From contig JAFXUZ010000043.1 in NCBI GenBank assembly GCA_017524725.1, forward strand, positions 1 to 64,000: a stretch of 64,000 bases of DNA, given 5' to 3'. The DNA comes from Clostridia bacterium (GTDB taxonomy: Bacteria > Bacillota > Clostridia > Christensenellales > Aristaeellaceae). The notes beneath the pieces were generated by a model. The model saw only the letters and a list, made by a program, of their open reading frames with translations. It did no database searches and was not told the DNA's origin. Of the stretch, positions 22,943-45,161 are shown in pieces; the stretch's first letter is position 1, and each line of letters opens with the position of its first letter. The position numbers and the translations under genes were made by a program.

Positions 22943-23462
22943 ATAGAAAGGTCTTTTGCTTCATTCCCAGGAATGGCCGAAAAAACAAAAAGTGAAATTT
23001 CTAAAATTCCGTGTCCTTTTGATCCTTTTGCGTTTTGACTTTTTCCGCCTCCTCCCAGGCATCCGACCTGGGCCTGAGCGAACCGGACATTCTGGGACGG
23101 GTAGTTACAGTCGGTGCTATGCTCGGTCCCGAAACCATCTCGAAGAAGGAAAGAACGCCCTTATCAATGTACTCATTTTTCTGATCGCTTTGCAGCTTTG
23201 CGGCGTTGACGATGAACGCAACATGTTCAACTGGACGAGATACCTGAACACACACGTGATGCTGCCTGAAGAAAATGAAGACAGCAGATATATAGACGAA
23301 ACAGGCACCATGTACGGTATAGGGTGACCCCTGATTTTCGGGGAACGGGAAGCGTTATGCCGGGTGACCATCGAGCCGGTTTGCGGAAAACGGTATTTGA
23401 CGATATTTCTCGCGCAGACTAGGAAACAGCGATTACTGTTATCATGAACGGGGGACATGTCG
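22943..23462 (+). other. 520-base region with no assigned gene
   Basis: The region follows a good promoter and precedes the secreted hydrolase. One frame ending at 23327 has a protein-like tail (MFNWTRYLNTHVMLPEENED), but it lacks a plausible ribosome binding site and an informative N-terminus. It could be a decayed gene, a leader RNA or a small unknown gene. I recognise no standard RNA here. Confidence 0.35.
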
Positions 23463-25634
23463 ATGATCAGACGTATTGCAGCGGGGATCCTGACAGCGGT
23501 ACTGCTTTTTCTCCTGATTCCCGGCACGGCCGTGAAGGCTTCGGAGCTTTCTCCTTATACCAAAACCGTTCGTTACGGCAGCAGCGGAAGCACCGTGACC
23601 GAACTGCAGGAAGCGTTGTCTTTCCTCGGCTATTATCAGCTGAAGATCGACGGTAATGCCGGAAACGCCACAATACGGGCGGTCAAGGCTTTCCAGAAGG
23701 ATCATGGCCTGAATTCGGACGGAGTCGCCGGCCCTGCCACCTGGGCAAGTCTGTCAGATGCGCTGGATGCTGCCGGGGCTGAGATGTCCGCAGTATTTGA
23801 AGTGGGTACGGAAATTCAGCAAAGTGTCCCCGAACAGAATGCTGCGGAAAATGAAACTTCGGATATCGGCGACGATACGCCTCTTGAGGGAGCGGAAGAA
23901 ACGGTTTCCGGAAGCGAAGTCCCTGCATCCGCCGCCGCGCAGGAGACCGTCCTTCTTTCGACGGAGGCGGCCTCAGCCGTGCCGGATATCACACCGCTGA
24001 CCGTGACCGTGCGCTACGGTATGCGCGGCGAAAGCGTGCGCGCGCTCCAGGAAGCTTTGATCGCCCTCGGCTACAGGCCAGGCACTCCGGACGGTGTATG
24101 CGGGAATGGAACAGTGGCGGCGATTCGCGCATTCCAGAAAGATTTCAACCTGAACGCTGACGGCGTTGCCGGCAAGGAGACCCTTGCGCAGATCAACGCC
24201 GGTCTGCAGGTGAAACGGGCGCAGCAGGAAAAGCCCGCCGGCCCCGATATAGCCGAAGTATCGGAAAACGTCACGGCTCCCGTGTCCGAGGCGGTGGAAG
24301 GACCTGCCGAAGCACAGGGCGTACCGGGCGGCGATGATGATCTGCGTATCCCTGCATCCGCTCTTTCCGGCGGTGACCGGGGTGACGATGTCTATGCCCT
24401 CCAGAAGGTATTGCTTTTCCTGGGGTATTATAACCTTTTCCTGGACGGATCTTACGGGCCGGGGACTGCGAACGCTGTCAAAGCATTTCAGGGTGATCAC
24501 AGCCTGACGACTGACGGCCGGGCAGGCCCCCAGACCCTGCAGGCCCTTGAAAAAGCCCTGAAGAAAGCCCTTGCAGCTCCCGCAAACGCACAGATGACCT
24601 CATGGATGGATACCCTTGCCAACGAGAACGGTGTGAAGAACGGGGCCGCTGTGATCACAAAGGACGGAGAGCTCCTTTTCGCCTGGGGTTGGGGCGGGAC
24701 CGACGAGGACACCTGCTTCAGGATCGCTTCGGTGACCAAATGGGTCACCGCCATCGGTCTGATGACATTATACGATCAGGGCCTGATCGACCTGGACGAG
24801 GATATCAGCGTCTATCTGCCTTTTGAAGTACGGAATCCGGGATACCGTGAGGAAAAGATCACTGCCCGCATGCTTTTGAACCACACGTCTTCCCTGCGTC
24901 CCGACGTCACAGATTATCATCCTGAATGGAGCCGCATCGGAACGAACGGATACGATCCCATCTTTATGGAGAATCTGCGGCCTGGGTCGATGTATTCCTA
25001 TGCTGACTTTGACGGCGCGCTGCTTGGATCCCTTATAGAAGCGATCACCGGCGAGAGCGTCCAGACCTATATGGACCGGGCGGTGTTCAAACCATTGGGC
25101 CTGACTGCGGCTTATACTCCGAAGCTCCTGCCTTCAGGCGTGTCTGCGGCCGACCTGCTCAGCACCTCCGGCACAGTCCAGATCAGCGTAAAAAAGGACA
25201 TCGAACGGGAATTCAACCTTTATGCGGATCCTGTGGACAACTGTGGCTATACGGTTGGAAGGTTGTTTATCAACGCTTCTTCCCTGTCCGTCCTGGCGCA
25301 GATGATGATCGACGGCGGTACTTACGGCGATGTCAGGATCCTGAATGAGAATACCGTCCGCCTGATGGAATCCGACACGACCCCGGCCCAAAGCCCCTAC
25401 GGCCTGGGACAGGTGCGCCTGAACCAGTTTTCCGGCGGAACATGGTACGGTCACCAGGGCAGGTACGGTGGGCTTTCTTCCAACGTGTACTATCAAAAGG
25501 AAAACGGCATCGCTGTGGTATTGATCCTGAACGGATACGACTATCGCCTGGAAAACAATGTCGTTCTGCCGGCTGTAAGTATCCTAGACAATATGGACGC
25601 CCTGATGAACATGGCGGGCGTAACCGTTGACTGA
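23463..25634 (+). CDS. secreted serine hydrolase with three peptidoglycan-binding repeats
   Basis: A signal peptide (about residues 1-28, cleaved near VKASE) is followed by three PG_binding_1 domains at about 35-100, 180-245 and 300-360. Each carries the G-x-x-V-x-x-LQ and KAFQ.DH signatures, joined by acidic/alanine linkers. The C-terminal 350 residues form a class C beta-lactamase-like domain with SVTK as the SxxK nucleophile, YADFD where YxN is usual, and HQGRYGG as the third motif. GGGGGA is seven bases before ATG 23463. It probably acts on cell-wall or D-amino-acid substrates outside the cell; the exact reaction is unknown. Confidence 0.85.
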   Translation: MIRRIAAGILTAVLLFLLIPGTAVKASELSPYTKTVRYGSSGSTVTELQEALSFLGYYQLKIDGNAGNATIRAVKAFQKDHGLNSDGVAGPATWASLSDALDAAGAEMSAVFEVGTEIQQSVPEQNAAENETSDIGDDTPLEGAEETVSGSEVPASAAAQETVLLSTEAASAVPDITPLTVTVRYGMRGESVRALQEALIALGYRPGTPDGVCGNGTVAAIRAFQKDFNLNADGVAGKETLAQINAGLQVKRAQQEKPAGPDIAEVSENVTAPVSEAVEGPAEAQGVPGGDDDLRIPASALSGGDRGDDVYALQKVLLFLGYYNLFLDGSYGPGTANAVKAFQGDHSLTTDGRAGPQTLQALEKALKKALAAPANAQMTSWMDTLANENGVKNGAAVITKDGELLFAWGWGGTDEDTCFRIASVTKWVTAIGLMTLYDQGLIDLDEDISVYLPFEVRNPGYREEKITARMLLNHTSSLRPDVTDYHPEWSRIGTNGYDPIFMENLRPGSMYSYADFDGALLGSLIEAITGESVQTYMDRAVFKPLGLTAAYTPKLLPSGVSAADLLSTSGTVQISVKKDIEREFNLYADPVDNCGYTVGRLFINASSLSVLAQMMIDGGTYGDVRILNENTVRLMESDTTPAQSPYGLGQVRLNQFSGGTWYGHQGRYGGLSSNVYYQKENGIAVVLILNGYDYRLENNVVLPAVSILDNMDALMNMAGVTVD

Positions 25635-31889: not shown

Positions 31890-33662
31890 TTATTGTTCAC
31901 ACGGGATGCGGTCTTTGGACCCGTCCAGAACCAAAGTCAGGTTGTTGAGGTTCAGGGAGTATGTATACCGGATATCATCGGCCATTGCGGTGACAAGCCG
32001 TATGCCCATTCCCTTGCCCTGCTCTTCGGGCGGGATATAACTGACAGGGTCAAAGCCCGAGCAGTCATCCCGGAAGCGAAGGACCCATTTGTCGTTCTTG
32101 TGCTGGATGCGTATGGACAGATGATTTCCCCCGCCTGGGGAGAATCCGTAAGATACGGTATTCGCTGCCAGTTCCTCCACGCAGACGGCAATACGGTTTG
32201 AAAATCGAGCGCTTTGCCCGTGGCGGGAACAGAACAGCCCCGCTGCCTGCGAAACGGAAGAAACGTCCTCCATGGTACGGATCTCAGCCTCCATAAGGTC
32301 ATTTTTGTCCACACCGAAGGAAGGATCAAGAAGCATAAAGCGAGGGAAATCGTCGCGAACATCACGGGTCCTGATATACGTGTAAAGGAAGACCGCGGCC
32401 AGCGTTATGATCTCGCCGATGACAAACTGGAGCCATAACCCGTCGATACCGATCATCTGCCGCAGAAGGAGCGCAGCGAGGCACGGGAAGACAGCGCCTT
32501 CACAGAAGGAGAAGACCTCTGTCAAAAGGACACGTCCCGTCCCCTGGTAAAAACTTTTCAGAGCGTTGGCGGCGCAGCATGGGATCAGGCCCGAGGCCAA
32601 CAGCCTGACGCCGAGGATGGCCATCCTTTGCGTCTCGTTCTCCTCAGTCAGGAAAAGGCCCACGAAAAACGGAGCAAAAATAACAAGTACGATACAAACG
32701 CACAGGCCGAGAAACACGCTCCATCGTAGAAGGAGAAACAGCACGTTCCTGAGGCCGTTCCGGTCCTCTTCCTGGCAAAGTATGCCTGATAGAGTCAGTG
32801 AAACACCGCTCATCCCGGTGCTGATGCTGTTGCTGGCGTTCATGATCCCGCTGGCGACGGCATACGCAGCGACCGCCGCCGCGCCGCCGCCTTCGGATCT
32901 CATGAACATGCGGTTGAGGAAGAAGACCAGAATAATGGAGGAAGCCATATTGAATGCTGTCGGGATACCGCCCCGGAAAAGCTCGCCTGCTTTGGCAAAG
33001 CTGAAACTCCTGAAGGAAAAACGGAAAACGCATTTTTTTGACAGGAAATAACCCAACCCGATGACCACGGCCACATAATAGCTGAGGGCCGAAGCAAGCC
33101 CCATGCCGAACATGCCGCCGTGGAACACAAGTACGTTCAGGAAATCAAAGGCGACATCGGAAACGGTCATCCCGATCACCGCGGCGATCAGGAGTGCGTT
33201 CTTTCCGGACATCATCAGGAACGGGACCAGGATCAAGGCAAACATCGATCCCGGAGCACCGATGGAGAAACCGGCAAGGTAACTGACGGTATCGTTGTGG
33301 ATGACTCCGGAGGCGCCGGCGCCGACGATCCGGGCAAGGAGGGACCGGAAAACGAGGACCAGCGTCATGAAAACAAGAGAAACGGTGAGGGAGATCACGA
33401 CAGCAGTTGAATAACCCCTGTTCGTTTCTTCCTGTGAACCGCTCCCCAGGGATTTGGAACACACCACCTGGATCCCGGCTGACAGCATGCCTCCGACCGC
33501 TCCGATGGAAAGAAGGAGCGGATTAGAAAGCTCGTAGGCGGCGATCGCGTTGATGCCGAGGAAACGGTTGATCATAATGTTGTCGATCAGAAGACAGACC
33601 GACACTGTAAGCGCCGAAAAGATCTGTGAGGCAAGCATCTGCCGGATTAGTTTCGGTGTCAT
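31890..33662 (-). CDS. MATE-family carrier fused to an anti-sigma-type kinase domain
   Basis: From ATG 33662 the protein has 590 residues. Residues 1-445 form a twelve-helix MATE/MOP carrier (LIDNIMINRFLGINAIAAY, later ASGIMNASNSISTG). The last 130 residues form an HATPase_c_2 domain of the RsbW/SpoIIAB class, with the N box VEELAANTVSYG, G1-like RDDCSGFDP and G2 GKGMGIRLV. These look intact, so ATP binding is likely. Ion-driven export coupled to a cytoplasmic kinase module is the direct reading. It is the first gene of the operon that also encodes a SpoIIE-type phosphatase. Confidence 0.88.
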   Translation of the reverse strand: MTPKLIRQMLASQIFSALTVSVCLLIDNIMINRFLGINAIAAYELSNPLLLSIGAVGGMLSAGIQVVCSKSLGSGSQEETNRGYSTAVVISLTVSLVFMTLVLVFRSLLARIVGAGASGVIHNDTVSYLAGFSIGAPGSMFALILVPFLMMSGKNALLIAAVIGMTVSDVAFDFLNVLVFHGGMFGMGLASALSYYVAVVIGLGYFLSKKCVFRFSFRSFSFAKAGELFRGGIPTAFNMASSIILVFFLNRMFMRSEGGGAAAVAAYAVASGIMNASNSISTGMSGVSLTLSGILCQEEDRNGLRNVLFLLLRWSVFLGLCVCIVLVIFAPFFVGLFLTEENETQRMAILGVRLLASGLIPCCAANALKSFYQGTGRVLLTEVFSFCEGAVFPCLAALLLRQMIGIDGLWLQFVIGEIITLAAVFLYTYIRTRDVRDDFPRFMLLDPSFGVDKNDLMEAEIRTMEDVSSVSQAAGLFCSRHGQSARFSNRIAVCVEELAANTVSYGFSPGGGNHLSIRIQHKNDKWVLRFRDDCSGFDPVSYIPPEEQGKGMGIRLVTAMADDIRYTYSLNLNNLTLVLDGSKDRIPCEQ

Positions 33663-33716
33663 TCCCGAACCGTCCTTTTCCCTGGTTGCAAAACCGGTAT
33701 TGGAATAATCCAATTT

Positions 33717-33767: not shown

Positions 33768-33796
33768 TTGCAAATCAAAACGTTATAAAGTAAAAT
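33768..33796 (+). promoter_or_regulatory. promoter of the giant repeat protein gene
   Basis: TTGCAA at 33768-33773 and TAAAAT at 33791-33796 have a 17-base spacer. It is divergent from the neighbouring operon promoter; the two -35 boxes are only 22 bases apart, so a shared regulator could control both. Confidence 0.65.
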
Positions 33797-33880
33797 AGTA
33801 TCTACCTCCCGGCGCAGGAAAATGTCGGCAATATTGTCGCTGTGTTTACGTCGGAAACCCAATGAGAGGAGATCCCGGAT

Positions 33881-36800
33881 ATGAAAAAAACTCACGCTGC
33901 TCTTCTTGCCCTGCTTATGATGCTCTTTCTTGCCTTCAGCGCCAACGCTGAGGTATCAGAGTGGCTGCAGGCGGATTATCAGTATACCTCCGCCGGAAAG
34001 ATCGAATCGGTACGCTACCTGAACAGGAACGGCGACCTGACCATAGCCGACGACCTGGGTTATGCCCAGGCCATATATACATACAAGGCAGGCCGGCTGC
34101 TCCAGTACGAATACCAGGACGATAAAGGCACGCCCGTGGACTCTGTATCGGGATTCTGCCGCTGTGTGTACTCTTATGAAGGAAAGCGGGTCGTCTCTCA
34201 AGCCTATTACACAGCGGAAGGCGCTCCCGCTGTCGGTCCGGAGGGCTTTTTCGAGGAAAAAACCGCGTATAGGGAAGGAAATATCTCATCCATTACCCAT
34301 TACGGTACGAATGGACAGCTTGTCTCTTCCGATTCCCTTTACGCAAAATATGAAGCCGTATACAAGGCAGACGCAAAAGATTCCCTCCACTTGGTTTCCG
34401 AGCAGTACACCTCCGCCGACGGATCGCTGTTCGCGGGGGACCGCGTTTGGGCGAAGGCTGTTTACCAATACTCCGATAATTTCAAGTACAAAACGCTGAC
34501 CGGTTATTACGGTCCGGACGGAAAACCCGTAGTGAATCCCTCCGTTGGCTACGCTTCCTGCGTATACGACGTAAATCAGGACAGCGTCCAAAGGATCGCT
34601 TATTTCGATGCCGACGGAAGGGCCATGGACGGTCCGGAAGGCTGGTCGGCCTGCAGCTACACTTACGGCGGTTCTAAAGAGACCCGCAAATACACCTGCG
34701 CCGACGGATCCCCCTTTGTGAACAAAAAAGGCTACAGCATGATCACCCAGGTTAAAAACGGCAGCCGGGTGACAGAAGAGTATTACTATGACGGGGACGG
34801 CAAGCCCGTGTTCACCTCCGACGGCTACGCCGGCTGGAAAAGGACCTACGCCAGCGGCGGAAAGGTCGGCATGCAGGTATACCTCGGAAAGGACGGCAAC
34901 CCGATGAACGTACCGTCCCTGGGGTACGCCCAGTTCAACCGTACTTATTCCGGCGGCCTTTTGACAGAGGAAATGTATTACGATGCCAGCCATCGCGAAG
35001 TCGAATGTGCGGACGGATACCACAAGGTGATCTACACCTACGATGAAAATAAGGACCTGGCCGAGGAATGGTACTACGGCTTGAATAATTCACTGACCCC
35101 CTGCAGCGGCGGGTACGCCGGCAAGGCTTACGAATACGACTTTTCCGGCCGTACGACCAAGGTCATCTATTATTCGACCAACAAATCCATTCAGGCAGCT
35201 TCTGACGAAGCGCTCGGAGCCTCCGAGGTACGCACGACCTATGCCGGCGGGAAGGAAGCCACTGTCAGTTACTACCTGAAAGGCAAGGCCGCGCTCAACA
35301 GTGACGGCTATTTCCGCAGGGAAAGCGTTTACGACAAAAACGGCCATCTGACCAGCCGTTCCTGGTACGGTACGGACGATACACTCATCGATACCTCAAA
35401 AGGCTATGCCAGGGTCGAATATGGCTATGATCCCCAGGGCAGGCAGATATCAGTCCGCTATTACAACGCCGATATGGCCCTGATGACGCCGAAACAGACC
35501 GAATACGCCTACACCGAGACCAGGTACGGCGTGGATAAGACCATCTACACCCTGTATTATTTCGGTTACGACGGCCAGCCCATGACACTGAAAAAAGGGT
35601 ACGCCTCCCTCTTTCGCGTTGTAGACGATAAAAACAGGGTCATTGAGGAAAGGTATTACGGTATCGACGGGGAACCTGTCACTGTCGGGGGCTATCACCT
35701 GATCCGCCAGGAATACGGCCCGAACGGAAAAGTAAGTTCGGTACGATACTTTAACACGGACGGAACGCCCGCCGTCGTGAACAACGGCTCCTCCGGCTTG
35801 AACTATAATTACGACGAAGACGGACGTGTGTCGGTCATCCGTTATCTTGACGGAAACGGCGCTCCCATCGCTATCCGTGAAGGTTATGCCACCTTGACCA
35901 GGGAATACGACGATAACGGGAACATCACTTCCGAAAGATATTACGACACACAGGGCAAACCCGTAAATCGCACAAAGGGATATGCAAGGATCGACCAGGT
36001 GTATGACGGCGAAAAACGCCCTGTCTTTACCACCTGGTATCAGCCGGACGGTCTTCCCGGGCTTGAAGGGGAGACCTACTGCAGCGCGGCGCGTATCTAT
36101 GGCAAAGGCGACCAGGTCGTCGACATCGTTTATTTCGATGAAAACAGCCAGCGCGTTCTCTGCAAGGCAGGCTACGCCGAATTGAGAAACCAGTACGATC
36201 CCGAAAGCGGGGAGACCGTGCGATGGGAATGGTACGGGGCCGACGGAAGCCCTGTCGCCTATGACGGATACCGTGCCGCGATGACAAGGGAATATGACGA
36301 CAAGGGCAATGTGAAGCTTGAAAGCTATTTCGGTACCGACGGAGCCCCCGTCTTGGGTGAAAAGGGATGGGCTTCCATCTACCGGGAATACAATGAAAGC
36401 GGAAAACCCATCCTGACCGTCTGGTACGGAACGGACGGAAAACCGGCTAACCCCTCCGGCAACACCTACTGCGCCCTGAGGCAGACATATGACGAAAGAG
36501 GAAACTGCACGGAGTACCGTTATGAGGACGGAAACGGTCGCCCGGTGAAAGCCGAGGAAGGCTACGCCGTCATGCAGCGCATTTACGATGATAACCGCAA
36601 GGTTACGAGCGAATCCTATTTTGACGAAAACGCTCTGCCCCTTTTGAACGCCAAGGGTTATGCCCGGATCACCCGGGAATATGACGGAAAAGGGAATATC
36701 ACCGAAGAACGCTATTATGGCACGAATGGAAAGATGATCCTTGCGTCCTCGGGATATGCCATGGTCCGCACAGAATACGATGCCGCGTCGGGGCTTATGA

Positions 36801-39800
36801 ACACCAGGACCTGGTACGATACCGAAGGCATGCCCCTGTGTGCCAACGGGTATTATGCGACGATCGAAAGGCAGTACGATGAAAACGGCAGGATCATCCT
36901 TGAAAAGTATTACGGTGCGGACGGTCTGCCGGCAGCCGGCAAGGATGGATACAGCGGGATCATCCGCAGATATGACGAAAAAGGCCGCGCGGTCTATATC
37001 AGCTGGTTTGACGAAAACGGGATCCCCGGCTTTGCAGGCGACCTGTATGTCAGCAAGGAGCAGGATTACGACGAAAAAGGCAACATCACCGAATACCGCT
37101 ACCTTGACGGCGCGGGAAAACTGACGCCCTGCAAAAACGGCTATTCAGTTCTTCGCCGGAAATACAACGATAATAGTCTCGTGATCCTGGAGCAGTACTT
37201 TGGCTCCGATCTGGCTCCGTTCTCTGTTTCCAAAGGATACGCCGGAATTTCCAGGGAATATGACGCCATGGGCCGCACTGTCCGCACGACATACCTTAAC
37301 GCCGACGCATCGCCCGTAATGATCTCCGGCGGCTATGCCTCTGTAGAGACCGATTACACAGGCGATTCAAAACTGGTTTCCAGGAAGGTTTGGTACGACG
37401 CTTCCGGACAGCCGGTGCGCGCCAACGGTTATTACGCGGCAGTCGGCTACGAATACGACGGCCAGGGCCGCGTAGCCATGGAAAGCTATTACGACGAAAA
37501 CAACGACCTTACTCCCTGCAAGAAGGGGTATGCTCGGATCTATAACGAATACGATGCCCAGGACAGGCCCGTATTTACTGTCTGGTATGATATTGACGGG
37601 CAGCCCTTCAATCCTGAAGGGAACACCTACCCGGCCCAGGAAACGGAATATGATGAAAAAGGCAACGCGGTCTGCTATCGGTACATGACCGCAGGCCATG
37701 AACCGGTCGCCTGCGCAGCAGGCTACCAGGTCCTCCGACTTGCCTATGACGGCAATGGCAAAGTCACCGACGAACGGTATTTCGACCATTCAGGCATGCC
37801 GGTCATGACAAAGAACGGAGCCGGTCTGCACAGGGAATACAACGAATACGGCCGTGTGACGCTGATCCGGTATCTTGACGAGGAAGACGATCCCTTCATG
37901 CTGTCGGACGGGTACGCCGAAAAACATACGGAATATTCCGGTTCCACCGCCCTCGTCACCCGTGAAGCCTGGTATGACAATCATGGCTCCTTTGTCGCCC
38001 CCGACGGCTATTACGCCATCGTAGAACGCAGTTATGATGCTGAAGGCAGAGTCGCTAACGAAAAATACTACGGCACGGACACGAAGCCTGCCGCCTGCAA
38101 AGCCGGCTATGCCGTCGTTACCAGGGAATACGACGAAAACGGGAATGTTTCGCTTGAACAGTATTACGACCAGGCCGGCGGCCCATTCGTTACTGACAAG
38201 GGTTACAGCGGCATCCGCAGGGAATACAATGAATACAAACGGGCAACCTGGGTCTGCTATCTTGACAGCAATGCACAGCCCGTTGTAATCAGCGCAGGCT
38301 ATGCTTCGGTGCGCACTGAATACTTGGGCAAAACGAAGTACGCTGTAAAGCAGTCCTGGTTCGGCGCGGACGGGGAACCCGTAAGCCCCAACGGTTACTA
38401 CGCTGCTGTAGAGAAGACCTACGACGAAAACTATAAAGTCACTTCCGAACGATACTACGGTGTCGACGGCAACCTTACCCTGTGCAAGAACAAATATGCC
38501 GGCATCGACCGCAGGTACAACGACAAGGAACAGGTCATCTATGAAAAGTGGTACGATGCTTCCGGCAATCCGTTCAATCCGAGCGGCAATACCTTCGTCG
38601 CCCAGGAGATCTCCTATAACGAGGACGGCAGGGCTTCGGAATACCGCTACCTGGATGAAAACGACCGGCCTGTCAAATGCAGCGCCGGATACGAGGCTCA
38701 GGGCCGTATCTACGACGAAAAGGGCAATGTCGCCGAATATACCTACCTTGACGCGAACGGAGTCCTTACCCCATGCGCTTCTGGTTACGCATATCTCCGT
38801 CGTGAGTATGACGACAGCAAAAATGTCATCCTCGAAACCTATTTCGGCACCGACGGGCAGCCGTATGAAATGTCTAAGGGGTACTGCGGGATCCGCAGGG
38901 AATACAATGAATTCAAACGGGTAATCTTTACATGCTTCCTTGACGCTGAAGGCAGGCCTGTCCTGACCAAAGACGGTTATGCCTCTGAGCGCTCCGAATA
39001 CCTGGGCAATACGAAATACGCGACCAAACAGGCCTGGTTCGGCGCGGACGGGGAACCTGTGAGCCCCAACGGATATTATGTCCGCATTGAGAAGGGCTAC
39101 GACGAGAATTACAAGGTCACATCAGAACGGTACTACGGCGCTGACGGTCAGCTTGCTCTCAGTAAGAACAAATATGCCGGCATCGACCGCAGGTACAACG
39201 ATAAGGGGCAAGTCGTCTATGAAAAGTGGTACGATGCTTTAGGCAATCCCTTCAATCCTAGCGGCAATACCTTCGCCGCCCAGGAGATCTCCTATAACGA
39301 GGACGGCAAGGCTTCGGAATACCGCTACCTGGATGAAAACGACCAGCCTGTCAAATGCAGCGACGGGTACGAAGTCCAGGGCCGCACTTATGATGAAAAA
39401 GGCAATGTCGCCGAATACGCCTACCGCGACGTTTCCGGCGCTCCGGTCCCCTGCATATCAGGCTACTCATTCCTGCGCCGTGAATATGACGACAGCAAAA
39501 ACGTCGTCCTGGAAACCTATTTCAGCACTGACGGGCTGCCGTATGAAATGCCGAAAGGTTATTGCGGGATCCGCAGGGAATATAACGAAAGCAAACAGGC
39601 GACATACACCTGTTACCTTGGCGCGGATGGGACACCCGTGGTGACCGAAGACGGCTATGCTTCTGTACGCACCGATTACCTGGGCAAAACGAAGTACGCT
39701 TTAAGGCAGGCCTGGTTCGGCGCTGAAGGTGAACCCGTGATCCCCAACGGATATTACGCTGCCGTGGAGAAGACATACGACGAAAACAACAAGGTCATAA

Positions 39801-41110
39801 CCGAACGGTACTACGGCGTCGACGGCAGCCTGACCCTGTGCAAGAACAAATATGCCGGCATCGACAGGCGGTACAATGACAAAGGGCAGGTCGTCTTTGA
39901 AAAGTGGTACGATGCCTCAGGCAATCCCTTCAATCCAAGCGGCAATACCTTCGCCGCCCAGGAGATCTCCTATAACGAGGACGGCAAGGCTTCTGAATAC
40001 CGCTATCTGGATGAAAACGACCGGCCCGTCAAATGCAGCGCAGGGTACGAGGTCCAGGGGCGTACCTACGACGAAAAGGGCAATGTCGCTGAGTACGCTT
40101 ACCGTGACGTTTCCGGCGCTCCGACCCCATGCGATTCGGGATACGCTTATCTCCGCCGCGAATACGACGACAGTAAAAACATCATCCTCGAAACCTATTT
40201 CGGCACTGACGGACTGCCGTATGAGATGCCTAAGGGCTACTTCGGCATCCGCAGGGACTACAACGAGAACAAGCGGGCGACATACACCTGCTACCTTGAC
40301 TCGGATGGGAAACCCGTGGTGACCAAAGACGGTTATGCGTCTGTCCGCACCGAATATCTTGGCAATACTAAGTATGCTACCATGGAGGCCTGGTTCGGCG
40401 CGGACGGGGAACCTGTGAGCCCCAACGGATACTATGTCCGCATTGTGAAGGGCTACGACGACAATTACAAAGTCACATCAGAACGTTACTACGGCGCTGA
40501 CGGTCAGCTTGCTCTCTGCAAGAACAAATATGCCGGTATCGACCGCAGGTACAACGATAAGGGGCAGGTCGTCTACGAAAAATGGTACGACACTGACGGT
40601 GTGCCTTTCAGCCCCACCGGAAACACCTTTGTCGCCCAGGAGATCGCATACAACAACGAAGGCAAGGTCTCGGAATACCGCTACCTTGACGAAAACGACC
40701 ATCCGCTGAAATGCTCCGCGGGCTATGAAATTCAGGGACGCATCTATGACAGTTACGGCAACGTCAGCGAGTTCGCCTACCGGGATGCCGACGGAAACCC
40801 GGTGATGTGTGCTTCCGGATACGCTTACCAGTATCGCGAGTACGACGCACAGAAGCATATCGTGCGCCAGGCTTACTTTGACACGGAGCATGCCCCTATC
40901 GATCTTAAAAACGGATATGCCGGTTATACCCAGACCTTTACCGAAAGCGGCAAGGTACATGTAATCACTTATTTCAATGCAAATGGCGAAACCACGGAGA
41001 TCAAGGGCGGTTATTCGAAAGCAGAATATATCTACAGCAGCGAAGACGTTCTCCTCAAAGTCGTTTATACAAACCTTGCAGGCGAAACCGTCAAGGAAGA
41101 AAATAAGTGA
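33881..41110 (+). CDS. giant secreted protein of about 74 tandem 32-residue repeats
   Basis: The 2409-residue protein has a signal peptide (about residues 1-24, ANAEV cleavage) and then almost nothing but repeats of about 32 residues. The consensus is GYA-x5-YD-x2-G-x-V-x4-YYG-x-DG-x-PV. The pattern recalls YD/RHS, MORN and YwqK-like beta-hairpin repeats, but period and consensus differ. There is no visible catalytic domain, cell-wall anchor (LPxTG), dockerin or C-terminal membrane segment; it ends with a short charged tail. It may be a long, tyrosine-rich, beta-structured extracellular fibre or adhesin. About 74 units is estimated from length. A GAGGAGATCCCGGAT leader precedes the ATG. Confidence 0.85.
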   Translation: MKKTHAALLALLMMLFLAFSANAEVSEWLQADYQYTSAGKIESVRYLNRNGDLTIADDLGYAQAIYTYKAGRLLQYEYQDDKGTPVDSVSGFCRCVYSYEGKRVVSQAYYTAEGAPAVGPEGFFEEKTAYREGNISSITHYGTNGQLVSSDSLYAKYEAVYKADAKDSLHLVSEQYTSADGSLFAGDRVWAKAVYQYSDNFKYKTLTGYYGPDGKPVVNPSVGYASCVYDVNQDSVQRIAYFDADGRAMDGPEGWSACSYTYGGSKETRKYTCADGSPFVNKKGYSMITQVKNGSRVTEEYYYDGDGKPVFTSDGYAGWKRTYASGGKVGMQVYLGKDGNPMNVPSLGYAQFNRTYSGGLLTEEMYYDASHREVECADGYHKVIYTYDENKDLAEEWYYGLNNSLTPCSGGYAGKAYEYDFSGRTTKVIYYSTNKSIQAASDEALGASEVRTTYAGGKEATVSYYLKGKAALNSDGYFRRESVYDKNGHLTSRSWYGTDDTLIDTSKGYARVEYGYDPQGRQISVRYYNADMALMTPKQTEYAYTETRYGVDKTIYTLYYFGYDGQPMTLKKGYASLFRVVDDKNRVIEERYYGIDGEPVTVGGYHLIRQEYGPNGKVSSVRYFNTDGTPAVVNNGSSGLNYNYDEDGRVSVIRYLDGNGAPIAIREGYATLTREYDDNGNITSERYYDTQGKPVNRTKGYARIDQVYDGEKRPVFTTWYQPDGLPGLEGETYCSAARIYGKGDQVVDIVYFDENSQRVLCKAGYAELRNQYDPESGETVRWEWYGADGSPVAYDGYRAAMTREYDDKGNVKLESYFGTDGAPVLGEKGWASIYREYNESGKPILTVWYGTDGKPANPSGNTYCALRQTYDERGNCTEYRYEDGNGRPVKAEEGYAVMQRIYDDNRKVTSESYFDENALPLLNAKGYARITREYDGKGNITEERYYGTNGKMILASSGYAMVRTEYDAASGLMNTRTWYDTEGMPLCANGYYATIERQYDENGRIILEKYYGADGLPAAGKDGYSGIIRRYDEKGRAVYISWFDENGIPGFAGDLYVSKEQDYDEKGNITEYRYLDGAGKLTPCKNGYSVLRRKYNDNSLVILEQYFGSDLAPFSVSKGYAGISREYDAMGRTVRTTYLNADASPVMISGGYASVETDYTGDSKLVSRKVWYDASGQPVRANGYYAAVGYEYDGQGRVAMESYYDENNDLTPCKKGYARIYNEYDAQDRPVFTVWYDIDGQPFNPEGNTYPAQETEYDEKGNAVCYRYMTAGHEPVACAAGYQVLRLAYDGNGKVTDERYFDHSGMPVMTKNGAGLHREYNEYGRVTLIRYLDEEDDPFMLSDGYAEKHTEYSGSTALVTREAWYDNHGSFVAPDGYYAIVERSYDAEGRVANEKYYGTDTKPAACKAGYAVVTREYDENGNVSLEQYYDQAGGPFVTDKGYSGIRREYNEYKRATWVCYLDSNAQPVVISAGYASVRTEYLGKTKYAVKQSWFGADGEPVSPNGYYAAVEKTYDENYKVTSERYYGVDGNLTLCKNKYAGIDRRYNDKEQVIYEKWYDASGNPFNPSGNTFVAQEISYNEDGRASEYRYLDENDRPVKCSAGYEAQGRIYDEKGNVAEYTYLDANGVLTPCASGYAYLRREYDDSKNVILETYFGTDGQPYEMSKGYCGIRREYNEFKRVIFTCFLDAEGRPVLTKDGYASERSEYLGNTKYATKQAWFGADGEPVSPNGYYVRIEKGYDENYKVTSERYYGADGQLALSKNKYAGIDRRYNDKGQVVYEKWYDALGNPFNPSGNTFAAQEISYNEDGKASEYRYLDENDQPVKCSDGYEVQGRTYDEKGNVAEYAYRDVSGAPVPCISGYSFLRREYDDSKNVVLETYFSTDGLPYEMPKGYCGIRREYNESKQATYTCYLGADGTPVVTEDGYASVRTDYLGKTKYALRQAWFGAEGEPVIPNGYYAAVEKTYDENNKVITERYYGVDGSLTLCKNKYAGIDRRYNDKGQVVFEKWYDASGNPFNPSGNTFAAQEISYNEDGKASEYRYLDENDRPVKCSAGYEVQGRTYDEKGNVAEYAYRDVSGAPTPCDSGYAYLRREYDDSKNIILETYFGTDGLPYEMPKGYFGIRRDYNENKRATYTCYLDSDGKPVVTKDGYASVRTEYLGNTKYATMEAWFGADGEPVSPNGYYVRIVKGYDDNYKVTSERYYGADGQLALCKNKYAGIDRRYNDKGQVVYEKWYDTDGVPFSPTGNTFVAQEIAYNNEGKVSEYRYLDENDHPLKCSAGYEIQGRIYDSYGNVSEFAYRDADGNPVMCASGYAYQYREYDAQKHIVRQAYFDTEHAPIDLKNGYAGYTQTFTESGKVHVITYFNANGETTEIKGGYSKAEYIYSSEDVLLKVVYTNLAGETVKEENK
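38297..41008 (+). repeat. 678-bp tandem duplications inside the giant gene
   Basis: The block starting with the GYAS(V/E)R motif occurs at 38297, 38975, 39653 and 40331, exactly 678 bases (226 residues, seven 32-residue units) apart. Equivalent positions, such as aaatatgccgg at 38492 and 39170, are identical. The fourth copy decays toward the C-terminus. The copies are far more alike than the units upstream of 38200, so they arose by recent in-frame duplication. Short-read assemblies could miscount them. Confidence 0.9.
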
Positions 41111-41123
41111 TCTCATCCATACC

Positions 41124-41153
41124 GGGCCTGATCTTATGATCAGGCCCATTGTT
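41124..41153 (+). terminator. terminator of the giant repeat gene
   Basis: A 10-bp stem (gggcctgatc / gatcaggccc) with loop ttat is followed by attgttt. It lies 14 bases after the stop codon. Confidence 0.78.
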
Positions 41154-41275: not shown

Positions 41276-42373
41276 ATGGATATGAATCTGCGCCCCGCAA
41301 ATGAATGCAAGTTTGACGCCGTCAGCCTTGGCGAAATCATGCTCCGCCTGGATCCCGGCGAAGGCCGTATCCGCACTGCCCGTTCCTTCCGTGCCTGGGA
41401 AGGCGGCGGTGAATACAACGTGATCCGCGGCCTGCGCAAATGCTTCGGACTCAGGACAGCCGTAATCACCGCTTTCGCTGAAAACGAAGTCGGCTACCTG
41501 ATGGAAGACTTCATTATGCAGGGCGGCGTTGACACTTCGCTGATCAAATGGATGAAGACCGACGGCATCGGCCGCATCTGCCGCAATGGCCTCAATTTCA
41601 CCGAACGCGGCTTTGGCATCCGCGGTGCCGTAGGATGCTCCGACCGGGCGAACACCGCTATTTCCAAATGTCGTCCCGAGGATTTCGATTTTGACTACAT
41701 CTTCGGCACACTTGGCGTTCGCTGGCTGCATACCGGTGGTATCTACGCCGCTCTTTCCGAGGAAGCATCGGAGACCGCTATCGCCGCCATCAAGACTGCC
41801 AAGAAATACGGCACCGTGGTCTCATATGACCTCAACTACCGGCCCTCCATGTGGAGTGCCATCGGCGGCCAGAAGAAGGCTCAGGAAGTCAACCGTGAGA
41901 TCGCCAGGTATGTGGACGTTATGATCGGCAATGAAGAAGACTTTACCGCCTGTCTCGGTTTCCAGATCGAAGGCAACGACGCCAATCTTAAAGAACTGAA
42001 TATCGAAGGCTACAAGAAGATGATCAACGAAGCGGCCAAGACCTATCCCAACTTCAAAGTCGTCGCCACCACACTGCGTACCGTTAAAACCGCTACTGTA
42101 AATGACTGGAAAGCACTCTGCTGGGCTGACGGTGAGATCTATCTTTCCAAGGCCTATGACGGGCTTGAGATCATGGATCGCGTCGGCGGCGGCGATTCCT
42201 TCGCTTCCGGCCTTGTTTACGGCCTGATCTCCACCGGTGATCCCGAGAAGGCGGTCAATTATGGTGCCGCACACGGAGCCCTTGCCATGACTACCCCCGG
42301 TGATACCTCCATGGCCCATAAGAATGAGGTCGAAGCCATCATGGGAGGCGCCGGCGCCCGCGTCAAGAGATAA
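41276..42373 (+). CDS. kdgK: PfkB-family sugar kinase, likely 2-keto-3-deoxygluconate kinase
   Basis: From ATG 41276 (AAGGAGG nine bases upstream) the protein has 365 residues. It is a ribokinase-family fold with the N-terminal substrate signature GGGEYNVIRGL and the C-terminal catalytic DRVGGGDSFASGL containing the base aspartate. The overall length and the RWLHTGGIYAALS region resemble KDG kinases, which phosphorylate KDG from pectin and alginate breakdown. The window contains a GH105 locus that would yield uronates, which fits. The substrate assignment is inference. Confidence 0.8.
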   Translation: MDMNLRPANECKFDAVSLGEIMLRLDPGEGRIRTARSFRAWEGGGEYNVIRGLRKCFGLRTAVITAFAENEVGYLMEDFIMQGGVDTSLIKWMKTDGIGRICRNGLNFTERGFGIRGAVGCSDRANTAISKCRPEDFDFDYIFGTLGVRWLHTGGIYAALSEEASETAIAAIKTAKKYGTVVSYDLNYRPSMWSAIGGQKKAQEVNREIARYVDVMIGNEEDFTACLGFQIEGNDANLKELNIEGYKKMINEAAKTYPNFKVVATTLRTVKTATVNDWKALCWADGEIYLSKAYDGLEIMDRVGGGDSFASGLVYGLISTGDPEKAVNYGAAHGALAMTTPGDTSMAHKNEVEAIMGGAGARVKR

Positions 42374-43744: not shown

Positions 43745-44854
43745 TTATTTATGCTTTGGATCCACCCAACTGACCCGCATCGCGGCAGCGCGGCGCTTAT
43801 CCTCGTCTGCGGCGGCATAATGCTTCCTGGTGGTGTTCACATTGGAATGGCCCAGCGAAGTGGCCACCAGATAAATATCCCCGGTTTCGCGGTAAAGGTT
43901 GGTACCGAATGTGGAACGCAGTTTATGCGGGCTGAGCCTTTCCTTCAGCGGAGCCGCGGCTGTAGCGTATTTTTTTACCAGGTCCTGCAGCGCCCGGGTA
44001 CTGATGCGTTTTTTTTGCAGTGAAAGGAAAAGGGCGTTTTCATGTCCTTCTGCGGGCTGGATCGTGTTTCTTTGAGCAAGGTAGTCCTCAAGCGCTTCCT
44101 TCACGCCGTCGTTGAAATAAAGGATCACCCGGTTCCCACCCTTGCGCGTGACGGCAAAGGCGCTGTTGTCCAAATCCACATCGTCCAAATCCATACCGAT
44201 CAGTTCACTGGCGCGGATCCCGGTGCCCACCAGCAGACACAGAATGGCCAGATCCCTGACCCTGGTGTTTTCCGCATATTTCTTCTGTCTTTTGCCCAGG
44301 CCCTCGCCGGTTTCGGCCGACTCCAGCATACGGGCTACCTCGTATTTGTCCAGGTAAATGATCGGCTTTTCATGTAGTTTGGGCATTGTAAGCTTTTCGG
44401 TCACATTTTCAGGGATAATCTCATGGATATACAGGTATTTGAAAAAAGACCTGACGGCCGACAGCTTGCGGGCGATGGCGGCCTCATCGTTCATCGTCAG
44501 CCGCACGTCGTCGCTGTTCTCGTCAAACAGTGCATTTCCGCTGTAATCAGGCCGTACATACTGCCTTAAATAGTCCTGGTAGCGTTCCAGATCCCTCAAT
44601 GTGATGCGTGCAAGATCCTCCGAGGTAAAAGAACCGGGCTCAAGGGACGCAAAAGCAGGTTCCTCCAGAATCAGAAAATAAAAAAAAGTCCTGAGGTCGT
44701 GCACGTACGCAAGTCTTGTAAGCACCGACGTCGTTGATGAAACAGAAAGGATATAATCACCGCACAGAGGGGGGAGGGATCGCAGTACTTCCCGGATCTG
44801 CGCGGTCGCTTTTTGCTTTTTCATTTGATGATAATCCGTTTTTTTCCCAGCCAT
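43745..44854 (-). CDS. XerC/XerD-like tyrosine recombinase
   Basis: From ATG 44854 (GGAGG seven bases upstream) the protein has 369 residues. The core-binding domain is followed by a catalytic domain with arginine in GTGIRASELIGM, SPHKLRSTFGTNL, GHSNVNTTRKHYA and the final tyrosine in KHYAAAD. All appear intact. It resembles the Xer group that resolves chromosome dimers, but single-copy XerC-like proteins also serve as phage or cassette integrases. It lies divergently next to a tRNA gene. No element boundary is evident. Confidence 0.88.
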   Translation of the reverse strand: MAGKKTDYHQMKKQKATAQIREVLRSLPPLCGDYILSVSSTTSVLTRLAYVHDLRTFFYFLILEEPAFASLEPGSFTSEDLARITLRDLERYQDYLRQYVRPDYSGNALFDENSDDVRLTMNDEAAIARKLSAVRSFFKYLYIHEIIPENVTEKLTMPKLHEKPIIYLDKYEVARMLESAETGEGLGKRQKKYAENTRVRDLAILCLLVGTGIRASELIGMDLDDVDLDNSAFAVTRKGGNRVILYFNDGVKEALEDYLAQRNTIQPAEGHENALFLSLQKKRISTRALQDLVKKYATAAAPLKERLSPHKLRSTFGTNLYRETGDIYLVATSLGHSNVNTTRKHYAAADEDKRRAAAMRVSWVDPKHK

Positions 44855-44969
44855 GGCTATTCCTCCGATAAAAGTATATGCCGATAAGGCACGCCTTGTC
44901 AAGGAACGCGATGAGTAATAACCAAGGAGAGAAAAGGTGTGCTGCTTCGTGTTTTTTTCCTGTTTTGCC

Positions 44970-44998
44970 TTTACAAATATGATGCGCTGTGGTATAAT
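44970..44998 (+). promoter_or_regulatory. promoter of the tRNA-Ala gene
   Basis: TTTACA at 44970-44975 and TATAAT at 44993-44998 have a 17-base spacer. The tRNA starts 12 bases after the -10 box. Confidence 0.85.
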
Positions 44999-45009
44999 AT
45001 TTTTTGTGA

Positions 45010-45082
45010 GGGGCATTAGCGCAGCTGGTAGCGCGCCACAATGGCATTGTGGAGGCCATCGGTTCGACTCCGATATGCTCCA
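45010..45082 (+). tRNA. tRNA-Ala (anticodon GGC)
   Basis: The cloverleaf is complete: acceptor GGGGCAT / ATGCTCC (45010-45016, 45075-45081), anticodon stem CCACA / TGTGG with loop ATGGCAT, and T stem ATCGG / CCGAT. The G3-U70 pair, the classic alanine identity element, is present. The discriminator is A and the CCA end is not encoded. Confidence 0.95.
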
Positions 45083-45091
45083 CTCAAAGGA

Positions 45092-45116
45092 CCTCGTCTT
45101 ATGACGAGGTTTTTTG
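45092..45116 (+). terminator. terminator of the tRNA-Ala gene
   Basis: Stem cctcgtc / gacgagg with loop ttat, followed by seven T residues. Confidence 0.92.
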
Positions 45117-45161
45117 TATATAACATACCATTTGTCCAAAATAGCTCATCCACACCGCAGG

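What the first reader, a model, noticed from the sequence alone, without database searches (positions are those of the whole stretch)
33881..41110. Giant secreted protein of about 74 tyrosine-rich 32-residue repeats
The protein is exported and almost wholly repetitive, with consensus GYA-x5-YD-x2-G-x-V-x4-YYG-x-DG-x-PV. It resembles YD, MORN and YwqK repeats without matching their period. There is no toxin domain, anchor or enzyme domain. A long beta-structured fibre, adhesin or matrix protein is plausible and may be undescribed.
Basis: partly seen in the sequence, partly recalled or inferred. Interest (0 to 1): 0.75.

Follow-up and report, generated by a model that had tools for sequence, protein, structure and literature searches.

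The report
Giant toxin-free YD-repeat surface protein
A gut bacterium makes an enormous exported protein built from 74 copies of one small folding unit; it is a long-period, toxin-free cousin of the YD (Rhs) repeats that wrap bacterial toxins, and its relatives sit in the genes that build the cell's sugar coat, so it is probably a scaffold of that coat and not a weapon.

Summary
ORF 33881-41110 encodes 2409 aa: a Sec-type signal peptide, then 74 units of about 32 aa from residue 27 to 2408, including four recent copies of a 7-unit (226-aa) block. It is a single gene under purifying selection (dN/dS about 0.14).

The unit is not a wholly unknown fold. It carries the YD motif (YDxxG[KRN]V), AlphaFold2 makes each unit one beta-hairpin (pLDDT 95 for 8 units), and the top 46 Foldseek hits of a 1028-aa model are all YD/Rhs-shell proteins. 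The Pfam RHS_repeat profile finds it only below cut-off, though it passes in close relatives. There is no Rhs core motif, toxin, anchor or enzyme domain.

The family is almost confined to one clostridial family (94 of 194 genomes; few elsewhere). A fixed-length subfamily, present once in this genome on another contig, lies between a Wzz/BY-kinase gene and a degenerate LCP gene; the pair is co-inherited in 19 of 19 genomes and absent from 111. Other members sit in capsule loci or are fused to membrane modules.

Best reading: a polysaccharide-layer scaffold. For the window copy itself this is inference, because its own neighbours are not capsule genes.

The parts
33768..33796 (+). promoter-like site TTGCAA-17-TAAAAT in the 167-bp divergent intergenic region
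   Evidence: consensus match only
33864..33871 (+). ribosome-binding site GAGAGGAG, 9 bp before the ATG
   Evidence: read from the sequence printed
33881..41110 (+). giant exported YD-type repeat protein, 2409 aa
33881..33949 (+). Sec-type signal peptide, residues 1-23, predicted cut ANA/E
   Evidence: by inspection: KK n-region, hydrophobic core, AxA motif
33959..41104 (+). 74 tandem units of about 32 aa (residues 27-2408), each one beta-hairpin
   Evidence: units; hairpins, for residues 27-1054
38201..40912 (+). four copies of a 7-unit, 226-aa (678-bp) supra-repeat, residues 1441-2344
   Evidence: 69-82% aa identity between copies
41124..41147 (+). intrinsic-terminator-like hairpin, 10 bp stem, just after the stop codon
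31890..33713 (-). divergent neighbour: MatE transporter fused to a HATPase_c_2 domain; conserved neighbour in G001 and G003
41279..42373 (+). downstream neighbour: PfkB sugar kinase; conserved neighbour in G001 and G003, separated by the terminator

Best explanation
The gene makes an exported, toxin-free YD/Rhs-type repeat protein: 74 beta-hairpins in a row form a very long curved strip of antiparallel sheet with a Tyr and a Tyr/Trp at the same place in nearly every hairpin. It belongs to a clostridial family many of whose members work outside the membrane together with capsule/exopolysaccharide (EPS) assembly proteins. The window copy is most likely released to the cell surface, where the strip binds and orders the surface polysaccharide as a scaffold of the sugar layer. 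Shown by computation: repeats, export signal (by eye), hairpin fold, kinship with YD shells, purifying selection, linkage of several subfamilies to EPS genes. Inferred: that the protein touches the polysaccharide, that the aromatic rows do so, and that the window copy shares the role of its EPS-linked relatives.
For: Fold: 8-unit model pLDDT 95.3, pTM 0.87; 1028-aa model mean pLDDT 90.1; Foldseek top 46 hits all YD/Rhs/teneurin/TcBC/SGS1 shells, best E 3e-29; VIA Z 10.8 over 144 residues to RhsA. EPS link: own-genome paralogue lies between a Wzz/BY-kinase gene and an LCP-family gene, followed by CapD-like, DegT and sugar transferase genes. In 18 named loci the Wzz/BY-kinase gene is directly upstream in 18/18 and the LCP gene directly downstream in 16/17 with sequence there. 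Phylogenetic profile: 19 of 130 genomes have this LCP and the same 19 have the repeat protein's C-terminal region at E<1e-30, next to each other; the rest lack both (chance 3e-23 if genomes were independent). Other subfamilies are also in capsule loci: giants beside Wzz, sugar transferase and LCP genes, and fusions to membrane modules inside EPS clusters next to DUF6077 or sugar transferases. A member of the window protein's own N-terminal clade, L104, also lies beside EPS-type genes. Selection: dN 0.11, dS 0.77 to two orthologues.
Against: The window gene's own conserved neighbours (MATE-HATPase, ABC transporter, SpoIIE, PfkB) are not EPS genes. Members of its N-terminal clade range from 867 to 3356 aa and most lack EPS neighbours. 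No carbohydrate-binding module or cell-wall anchor is recognisable. One relative is fused to a TIR domain, so the repeat is a reusable module and need not always serve polysaccharide.
Confidence: 0.5

Rival explanations
1. Adhesin or cell-cell recognition protein: the strip is exposed and binds plant-fibre, host or neighbour-cell glycans, as teneurins and other large repeat proteins bind partners.
For: Secreted, long, changing repeat number with four recent 226-aa duplications; relatives come from rumen, goat and sheep gut genomes, a fibre-rich setting; variable length in its own clade.
Against: No anchor or sortase signal; the best-understood subfamily is fixed in length and tied to EPS assembly, not to surface-binding genes.
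Confidence: 0.22
2. Closed YD cocoon that carries a cargo made from another gene (an enzyme or toxin), as the B-C shell of Tc proteins or Rhs shells carry their toxin domain.
For: Fold kinship to Rhs/TcBC shells; 74 hairpins exceed the 40 that form the Tse5 barrel (PMC10684867).
Against: No Rhs core protease motif, no plug domains recognised, no toxin or immunity-type gene next to it; long-model pTM only 0.46, so closure is not shown.
Confidence: 0.12
3. Decaying remnant of an Rhs toxin that lost its toxic end and is now without function.
For: No C-terminal toxin; distant kinship with Rhs.
Against: dN/dS about 0.14 over 1440-1500 codons in two comparisons; full-length open frame; own promoter-like site and terminator; none of 61 family sequences carries the Rhs core motif.
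Confidence: 0.03

Closest known systems
YD/Rhs repeat proteins (Pfam RHS_repeat PF05593, NCBIfam TIGR01643; Rhs toxins, WapA, TcB-TcC, teneurins)
   Same: YDxxG[R/K/N][L/V] hairpin motif with the DxxG turn, antiparallel hairpin strip, often giant and exported; Foldseek E 3e-29; profile passes cut-off in some relatives (22.1-28.0 against 22)
   Different: period 32 instead of about 24 in Tse5 (about 970 aa for 40 hairpins, from the numbers in PMC10684867); no core protease motif, no toxin; window protein itself below the profile cut-off (19.8 bits); several subfamilies linked to capsule assembly
MORN_2 / YwqK repeats (PF07661)
   Same: Tyr- and Gly-rich short repeats; sub-threshold hit in relative L036 (23.6 against 29.6)
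   Different: 22-position model, no hit in the window protein, not among the fold matches seen
OspA single-layer sheet and DUF3836 proteins
   Same: antiparallel hairpins side by side in one sheet; secondary fold matches
   Different: a few hairpins only; no YD motif (own knowledge)
LcpA-GspA pair of Actinomyces oris (PMC6381275)
   Same: an LCP protein genetically paired with a large surface protein, which it glycosylates in A. oris
   Different: here the LCP partner of the EPS-linked subfamily has Trp in place of the strand-3 Arg in all 17 aligned sequences, no sortase signal was seen, and the window gene has no LCP neighbour

Membership tests
YD/Rhs repeat fold | YDxxGRL-type motif repeated along the chain | tested here: met
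   columns 9-15: Y 71/74, D/N 53/73, G 40/73, K/R/N 56/74, V/I/L 48/73; consensus of known YD repeats from PMC10684867
YD/Rhs repeat fold | each repeat one beta-hairpin, hairpins side by side in a strip like Rhs shells | tested here: met
   predicted structure only:
YD/Rhs repeat fold | strip closes into a hollow barrel/cocoon | tested here: inconclusive
   mean pLDDT 90 but pTM 0.46 and rmsd above 20 A over full length to Rhs shells
Pfam RHS_repeat PF05593 | score at or above the gathering cut-off of 22 bits | tested here: not met
   window protein absent, 19.8 bits; relatives L094 28.0, L036 22.5, G003 orthologue 22.1, G011 22.5 pass
Rhs polymorphic toxins | core aspartyl-protease motif (P-x4-DPxG[LY]) followed by a variable toxin domain | tested here: not met
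   no match in any of 61 family sequences; repeats run to residue 2408 of 2409; no toxin domain over cut-off
MORN_2 / YwqK | MORN_2 profile match | tested here: not met
   no hit in window protein at E<1; below cut-off in L036
Choline/glucan-binding cell-wall repeats | CW_binding profile match | tested here: not met
   no hit at E<1
EPS-linked 1950-aa subfamily | collinear full-length match and place between Wzz/BY-kinase and LCP genes | tested here: not met
   window protein groups by its N-terminus with L037, L101, L107, L040 and others, not with that subfamily; no such neighbours

The most novel reading that the evidence does not exclude
YD shells have a second, non-toxic trade: in these Clostridia they act outside the membrane as a chamber, ruler or acceptor for growing capsule polysaccharide, with the fixed-length subfamily (1916-2035 aa) and its degenerate LCP partner as a chain-handling unit, and the window protein as a free, longer version that organises the finished polymer.
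Probability: 0.17. Interest if true: 0.85.

Novelty: new variant of a known kind. Interest (0 to 1): 0.58.

Why it matters
YD/Rhs shells are known mainly as toxin wrappers or as teneurin-type receptors. A whole family of toxin-free, long-period YD proteins, tied by gene order, co-inheritance and fusions to capsule assembly, would give this fold a structural job in the bacterial surface and would add an unrecognised component to the Wzz/BY-kinase/LCP polysaccharide pathway in gut Clostridia. No Pfam or NCBIfam model covers it, so these very large proteins are probably annotated as hypothetical.

Tried and rejected
Pfam's borderline hits to Ntox37 and SSXT (E about 2e-4, 17-22 residues, below cut-off, no stretch passing) look like repeat-composition artefacts. 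Sequence search of the PDB gave nothing for the protein and only E 0.68 to a Gtf2 accessory sheet for the profile. No relatives in plasmid or phage records at E 1e-5, so mobile or phage origin is not supported. An alignment of mixed subfamilies was too diverse for the named-genome scan, so that scan used the EPS-linked subfamily and its names describe that subfamily. VIA rows for LptD, Tom40, TarM and SdgB look like generic sheet matches and were set aside. Paper searches on YD repeats with EPS, rumen or Butyrivibrio found no description of this family, but only open-access text was searched.

Full report
WHAT IS THERE. The ORF at 33881-41110 (+) is 2409 aa. After a 23-residue signal peptide (read by eye), a self-trained cyclic profile divides residues 27-2408 into 74 units, mostly of 32 residues with a share of 33; the score is 3706 bits against about -470 for shuffled sequence, and 32 is the only strong short period. 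Residues 1441-2344 are four copies of a 7-unit block of 226 aa at 69-82% identity, so the protein has grown recently by duplication of whole blocks. It looks like a single gene: promoter-like site, ribosome-binding site, 10-bp terminator hairpin. Two orthologues of the same genus, 80-81% identical, keep the same neighbours and give dN 0.11 and dS 0.76-0.78: the protein is under purifying selection. In one of them the copy is broken into two frames and in the other it is split over two contigs at the repeats, which may be assembly error.

WHAT FOLD. No Pfam or NCBIfam family passes its cut-off and no PDB sequence matches. Eight units with a 54-row alignment of family members fold at mean pLDDT 95.3 and pTM 0.87, each unit a hairpin of strands at positions 4-9 and 15-21 plus a one-residue bridge at position 27. 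The turn between the strands is the D10-x-x-G13 of the YD motif. Published YD repeats have YDxxGRL[I/T], DxxGR making the hairpin turn and the Tyr facing the shell interior (PMC10684867). Foldseek on the small and on the 1028-aa model returns Rhs effectors, Tc B-C shells, teneurins and SGS1 first, E down to 3e-29; VIA Z is 10.8 for RhsA over 144 residues. The long model has mean pLDDT 90 but pTM 0.46 and superposes poorly over full length, so whether the strip closes into a cocoon is open. By sequence, the RHS_repeat profile run over the whole own genome has one hit at E<0.01, and it is this gene, at 19.8 bits under the cut-off of 22; the G003 orthologue (22.1), the G011 relative (22.5), L036 (22.5) and L094 (28.0) are over it. 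I conclude that these are remote, long-period YD repeats: per unit, the link from one hairpin to the next is lengthened (DGxPVxxxxGYA).

WHAT FAMILY. The own genome has two such proteins. With the 8-unit profile, 94 of 194 genomes of the same family and 21 of 39 genera have one or more, against 4 other genomes in a class-wide sample of 391 and 2 others in a phylum-wide sample of 398. Named hits to the EPS-linked subfamily are Clostridia MAGs, many from rumen, goat and sheep gut, among them Christensenella sp. UBA1224 and UBA4379; a more distant hit is in Butyrivibrio sp. Su6. I did not establish the name of the window's own genus or family.

EPS-LINKED SUBFAMILY. The paralogue on contig 10 is 1954 aa and lies between a Wzz/BY-kinase gene and an LCP-family gene, followed by NusG-like, CapD-like, DegT and sugar-transferase genes (the NusG-like and CapD-like labels are by reading, Pfam gave no hit). 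Its relatives are collinear over the whole length at 47-86% identity and keep a length of 1916-2035 aa, unlike the window protein's clade. Wzz/BY-kinase is directly upstream in 18 of 18 named loci, the LCP gene directly downstream in 16 of 17 with sequence there. In 130 genomes of the family, 19 have the LCP gene and the same 19 have the subfamily's C-terminal region at E<1e-30, adjacent in each; three further weak hits (E 1e-16 to 1e-17) are in other repeat proteins. Shared descent inflates the chance figure of 3e-23, but the pair is clearly inherited together. The LCP partner is unusual: the strand-3 Arg is Trp in all 17 sequences and it has its own invariant motifs. In A. oris LcpA the strand-3 Arg (R128) is dispensable while R149 and R266 are needed (PMC6381275); the equivalents of those two cannot be placed with confidence here, so activity is unknown.

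OTHER ARCHITECTURES. Giants of 2600-3150 aa lie beside Wzz-type, sugar-transferase and LCP genes and, by reading, PHP-type phosphatase genes. Shorter repeat sets are fused behind membrane segments inside EPS clusters: L036 and L094 next to DUF6077 genes, L060 behind a polytopic region, L113 beside sugar-transferase and DegT genes. L034, L041, L052, L099, L109 and L111 have a homologous neighbour, with a PG_binding_1 domain where tested (L034). L037 and L105 lie beside FHA genes. L093 is TIR - membrane segment - 26 repeats. The window protein's N-terminal 260 residues match L037, L101, L107, L040, L108, L105, L106, L104, L039 and L110 best after its two orthologues; some of these (L104, L108, L110) have possible EPS-type genes in reach, most do not.

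HOW IT MOST LIKELY WORKS. Exported by Sec; folds into a hairpin strip with Tyr9 and Tyr/Trp20 side chains aligned from unit to unit; stays at the surface without covalent anchor by binding the polysaccharide layer, whose assembly genes many family members accompany. Export signal, fold and family linkage are computed or read; polysaccharide contact and the role of the aromatic rows are inference; transfer of the role to the window copy is the weakest step.

VERDICT. A real and so far uncurated family, a new variant of the YD/Rhs kind: same hairpin and motif, longer period, no toxin, and for several subfamilies a different genomic setting. Not an Rhs toxin.

Noticed in passing
L093:7418-11188 (-): TIR_2 domain, a membrane segment and 26 repeats in one protein of a genome outside the family: a receptor-like architecture, unknown partner.
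   Followed up: partly
L009:13372-14469 and orthologues: LCP-family protein with its own invariant motifs (CNEGMxN, WDTF, AERNALN, NGLQAV, SVYNCC) and Trp in place of the strand-3 Arg; co-inherited with the EPS-linked repeat protein, perhaps a non-catalytic LCP.
   Followed up: partly
L036:9616-10674 and L094:10709-11776: DUF6077 membrane protein directly upstream of a membrane-fused repeat protein in EPS clusters of two different families; suggests a role for DUF6077 in EPS assembly.
   Followed up: partly
window 31890-33713 (-): MatE transporter fused to a C-terminal HATPase_c_2 domain, with ABC transporter genes and a SpoIIE phosphatase gene next to it; synteny conserved in three genomes.
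   Followed up: partly
window 33881-41110: 34 cysteines, 18 of them at unit position 30, in an exported protein of a probable anaerobe; purpose unclear.
   Followed up: no
window 23457-25634 (+): Protein with three PG_binding_1 stretches and a beta-lactamase-type domain, with an apparent signal peptide.
   Followed up: no
window 43745-45139 (-) and 45010-45083 (+): Tyrosine recombinase ORF whose TTG-started 5' end overlaps a tRNA-Ala gene on the other strand; the real start is probably the internal ATG near MAGKKTDYHQ.
   Followed up: partly
L029:7739-13410 (G001): Window orthologue is broken into two frames in this genome, and split over two contigs in G003; biological break or assembly error at the repeats cannot be told.
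   Followed up: no
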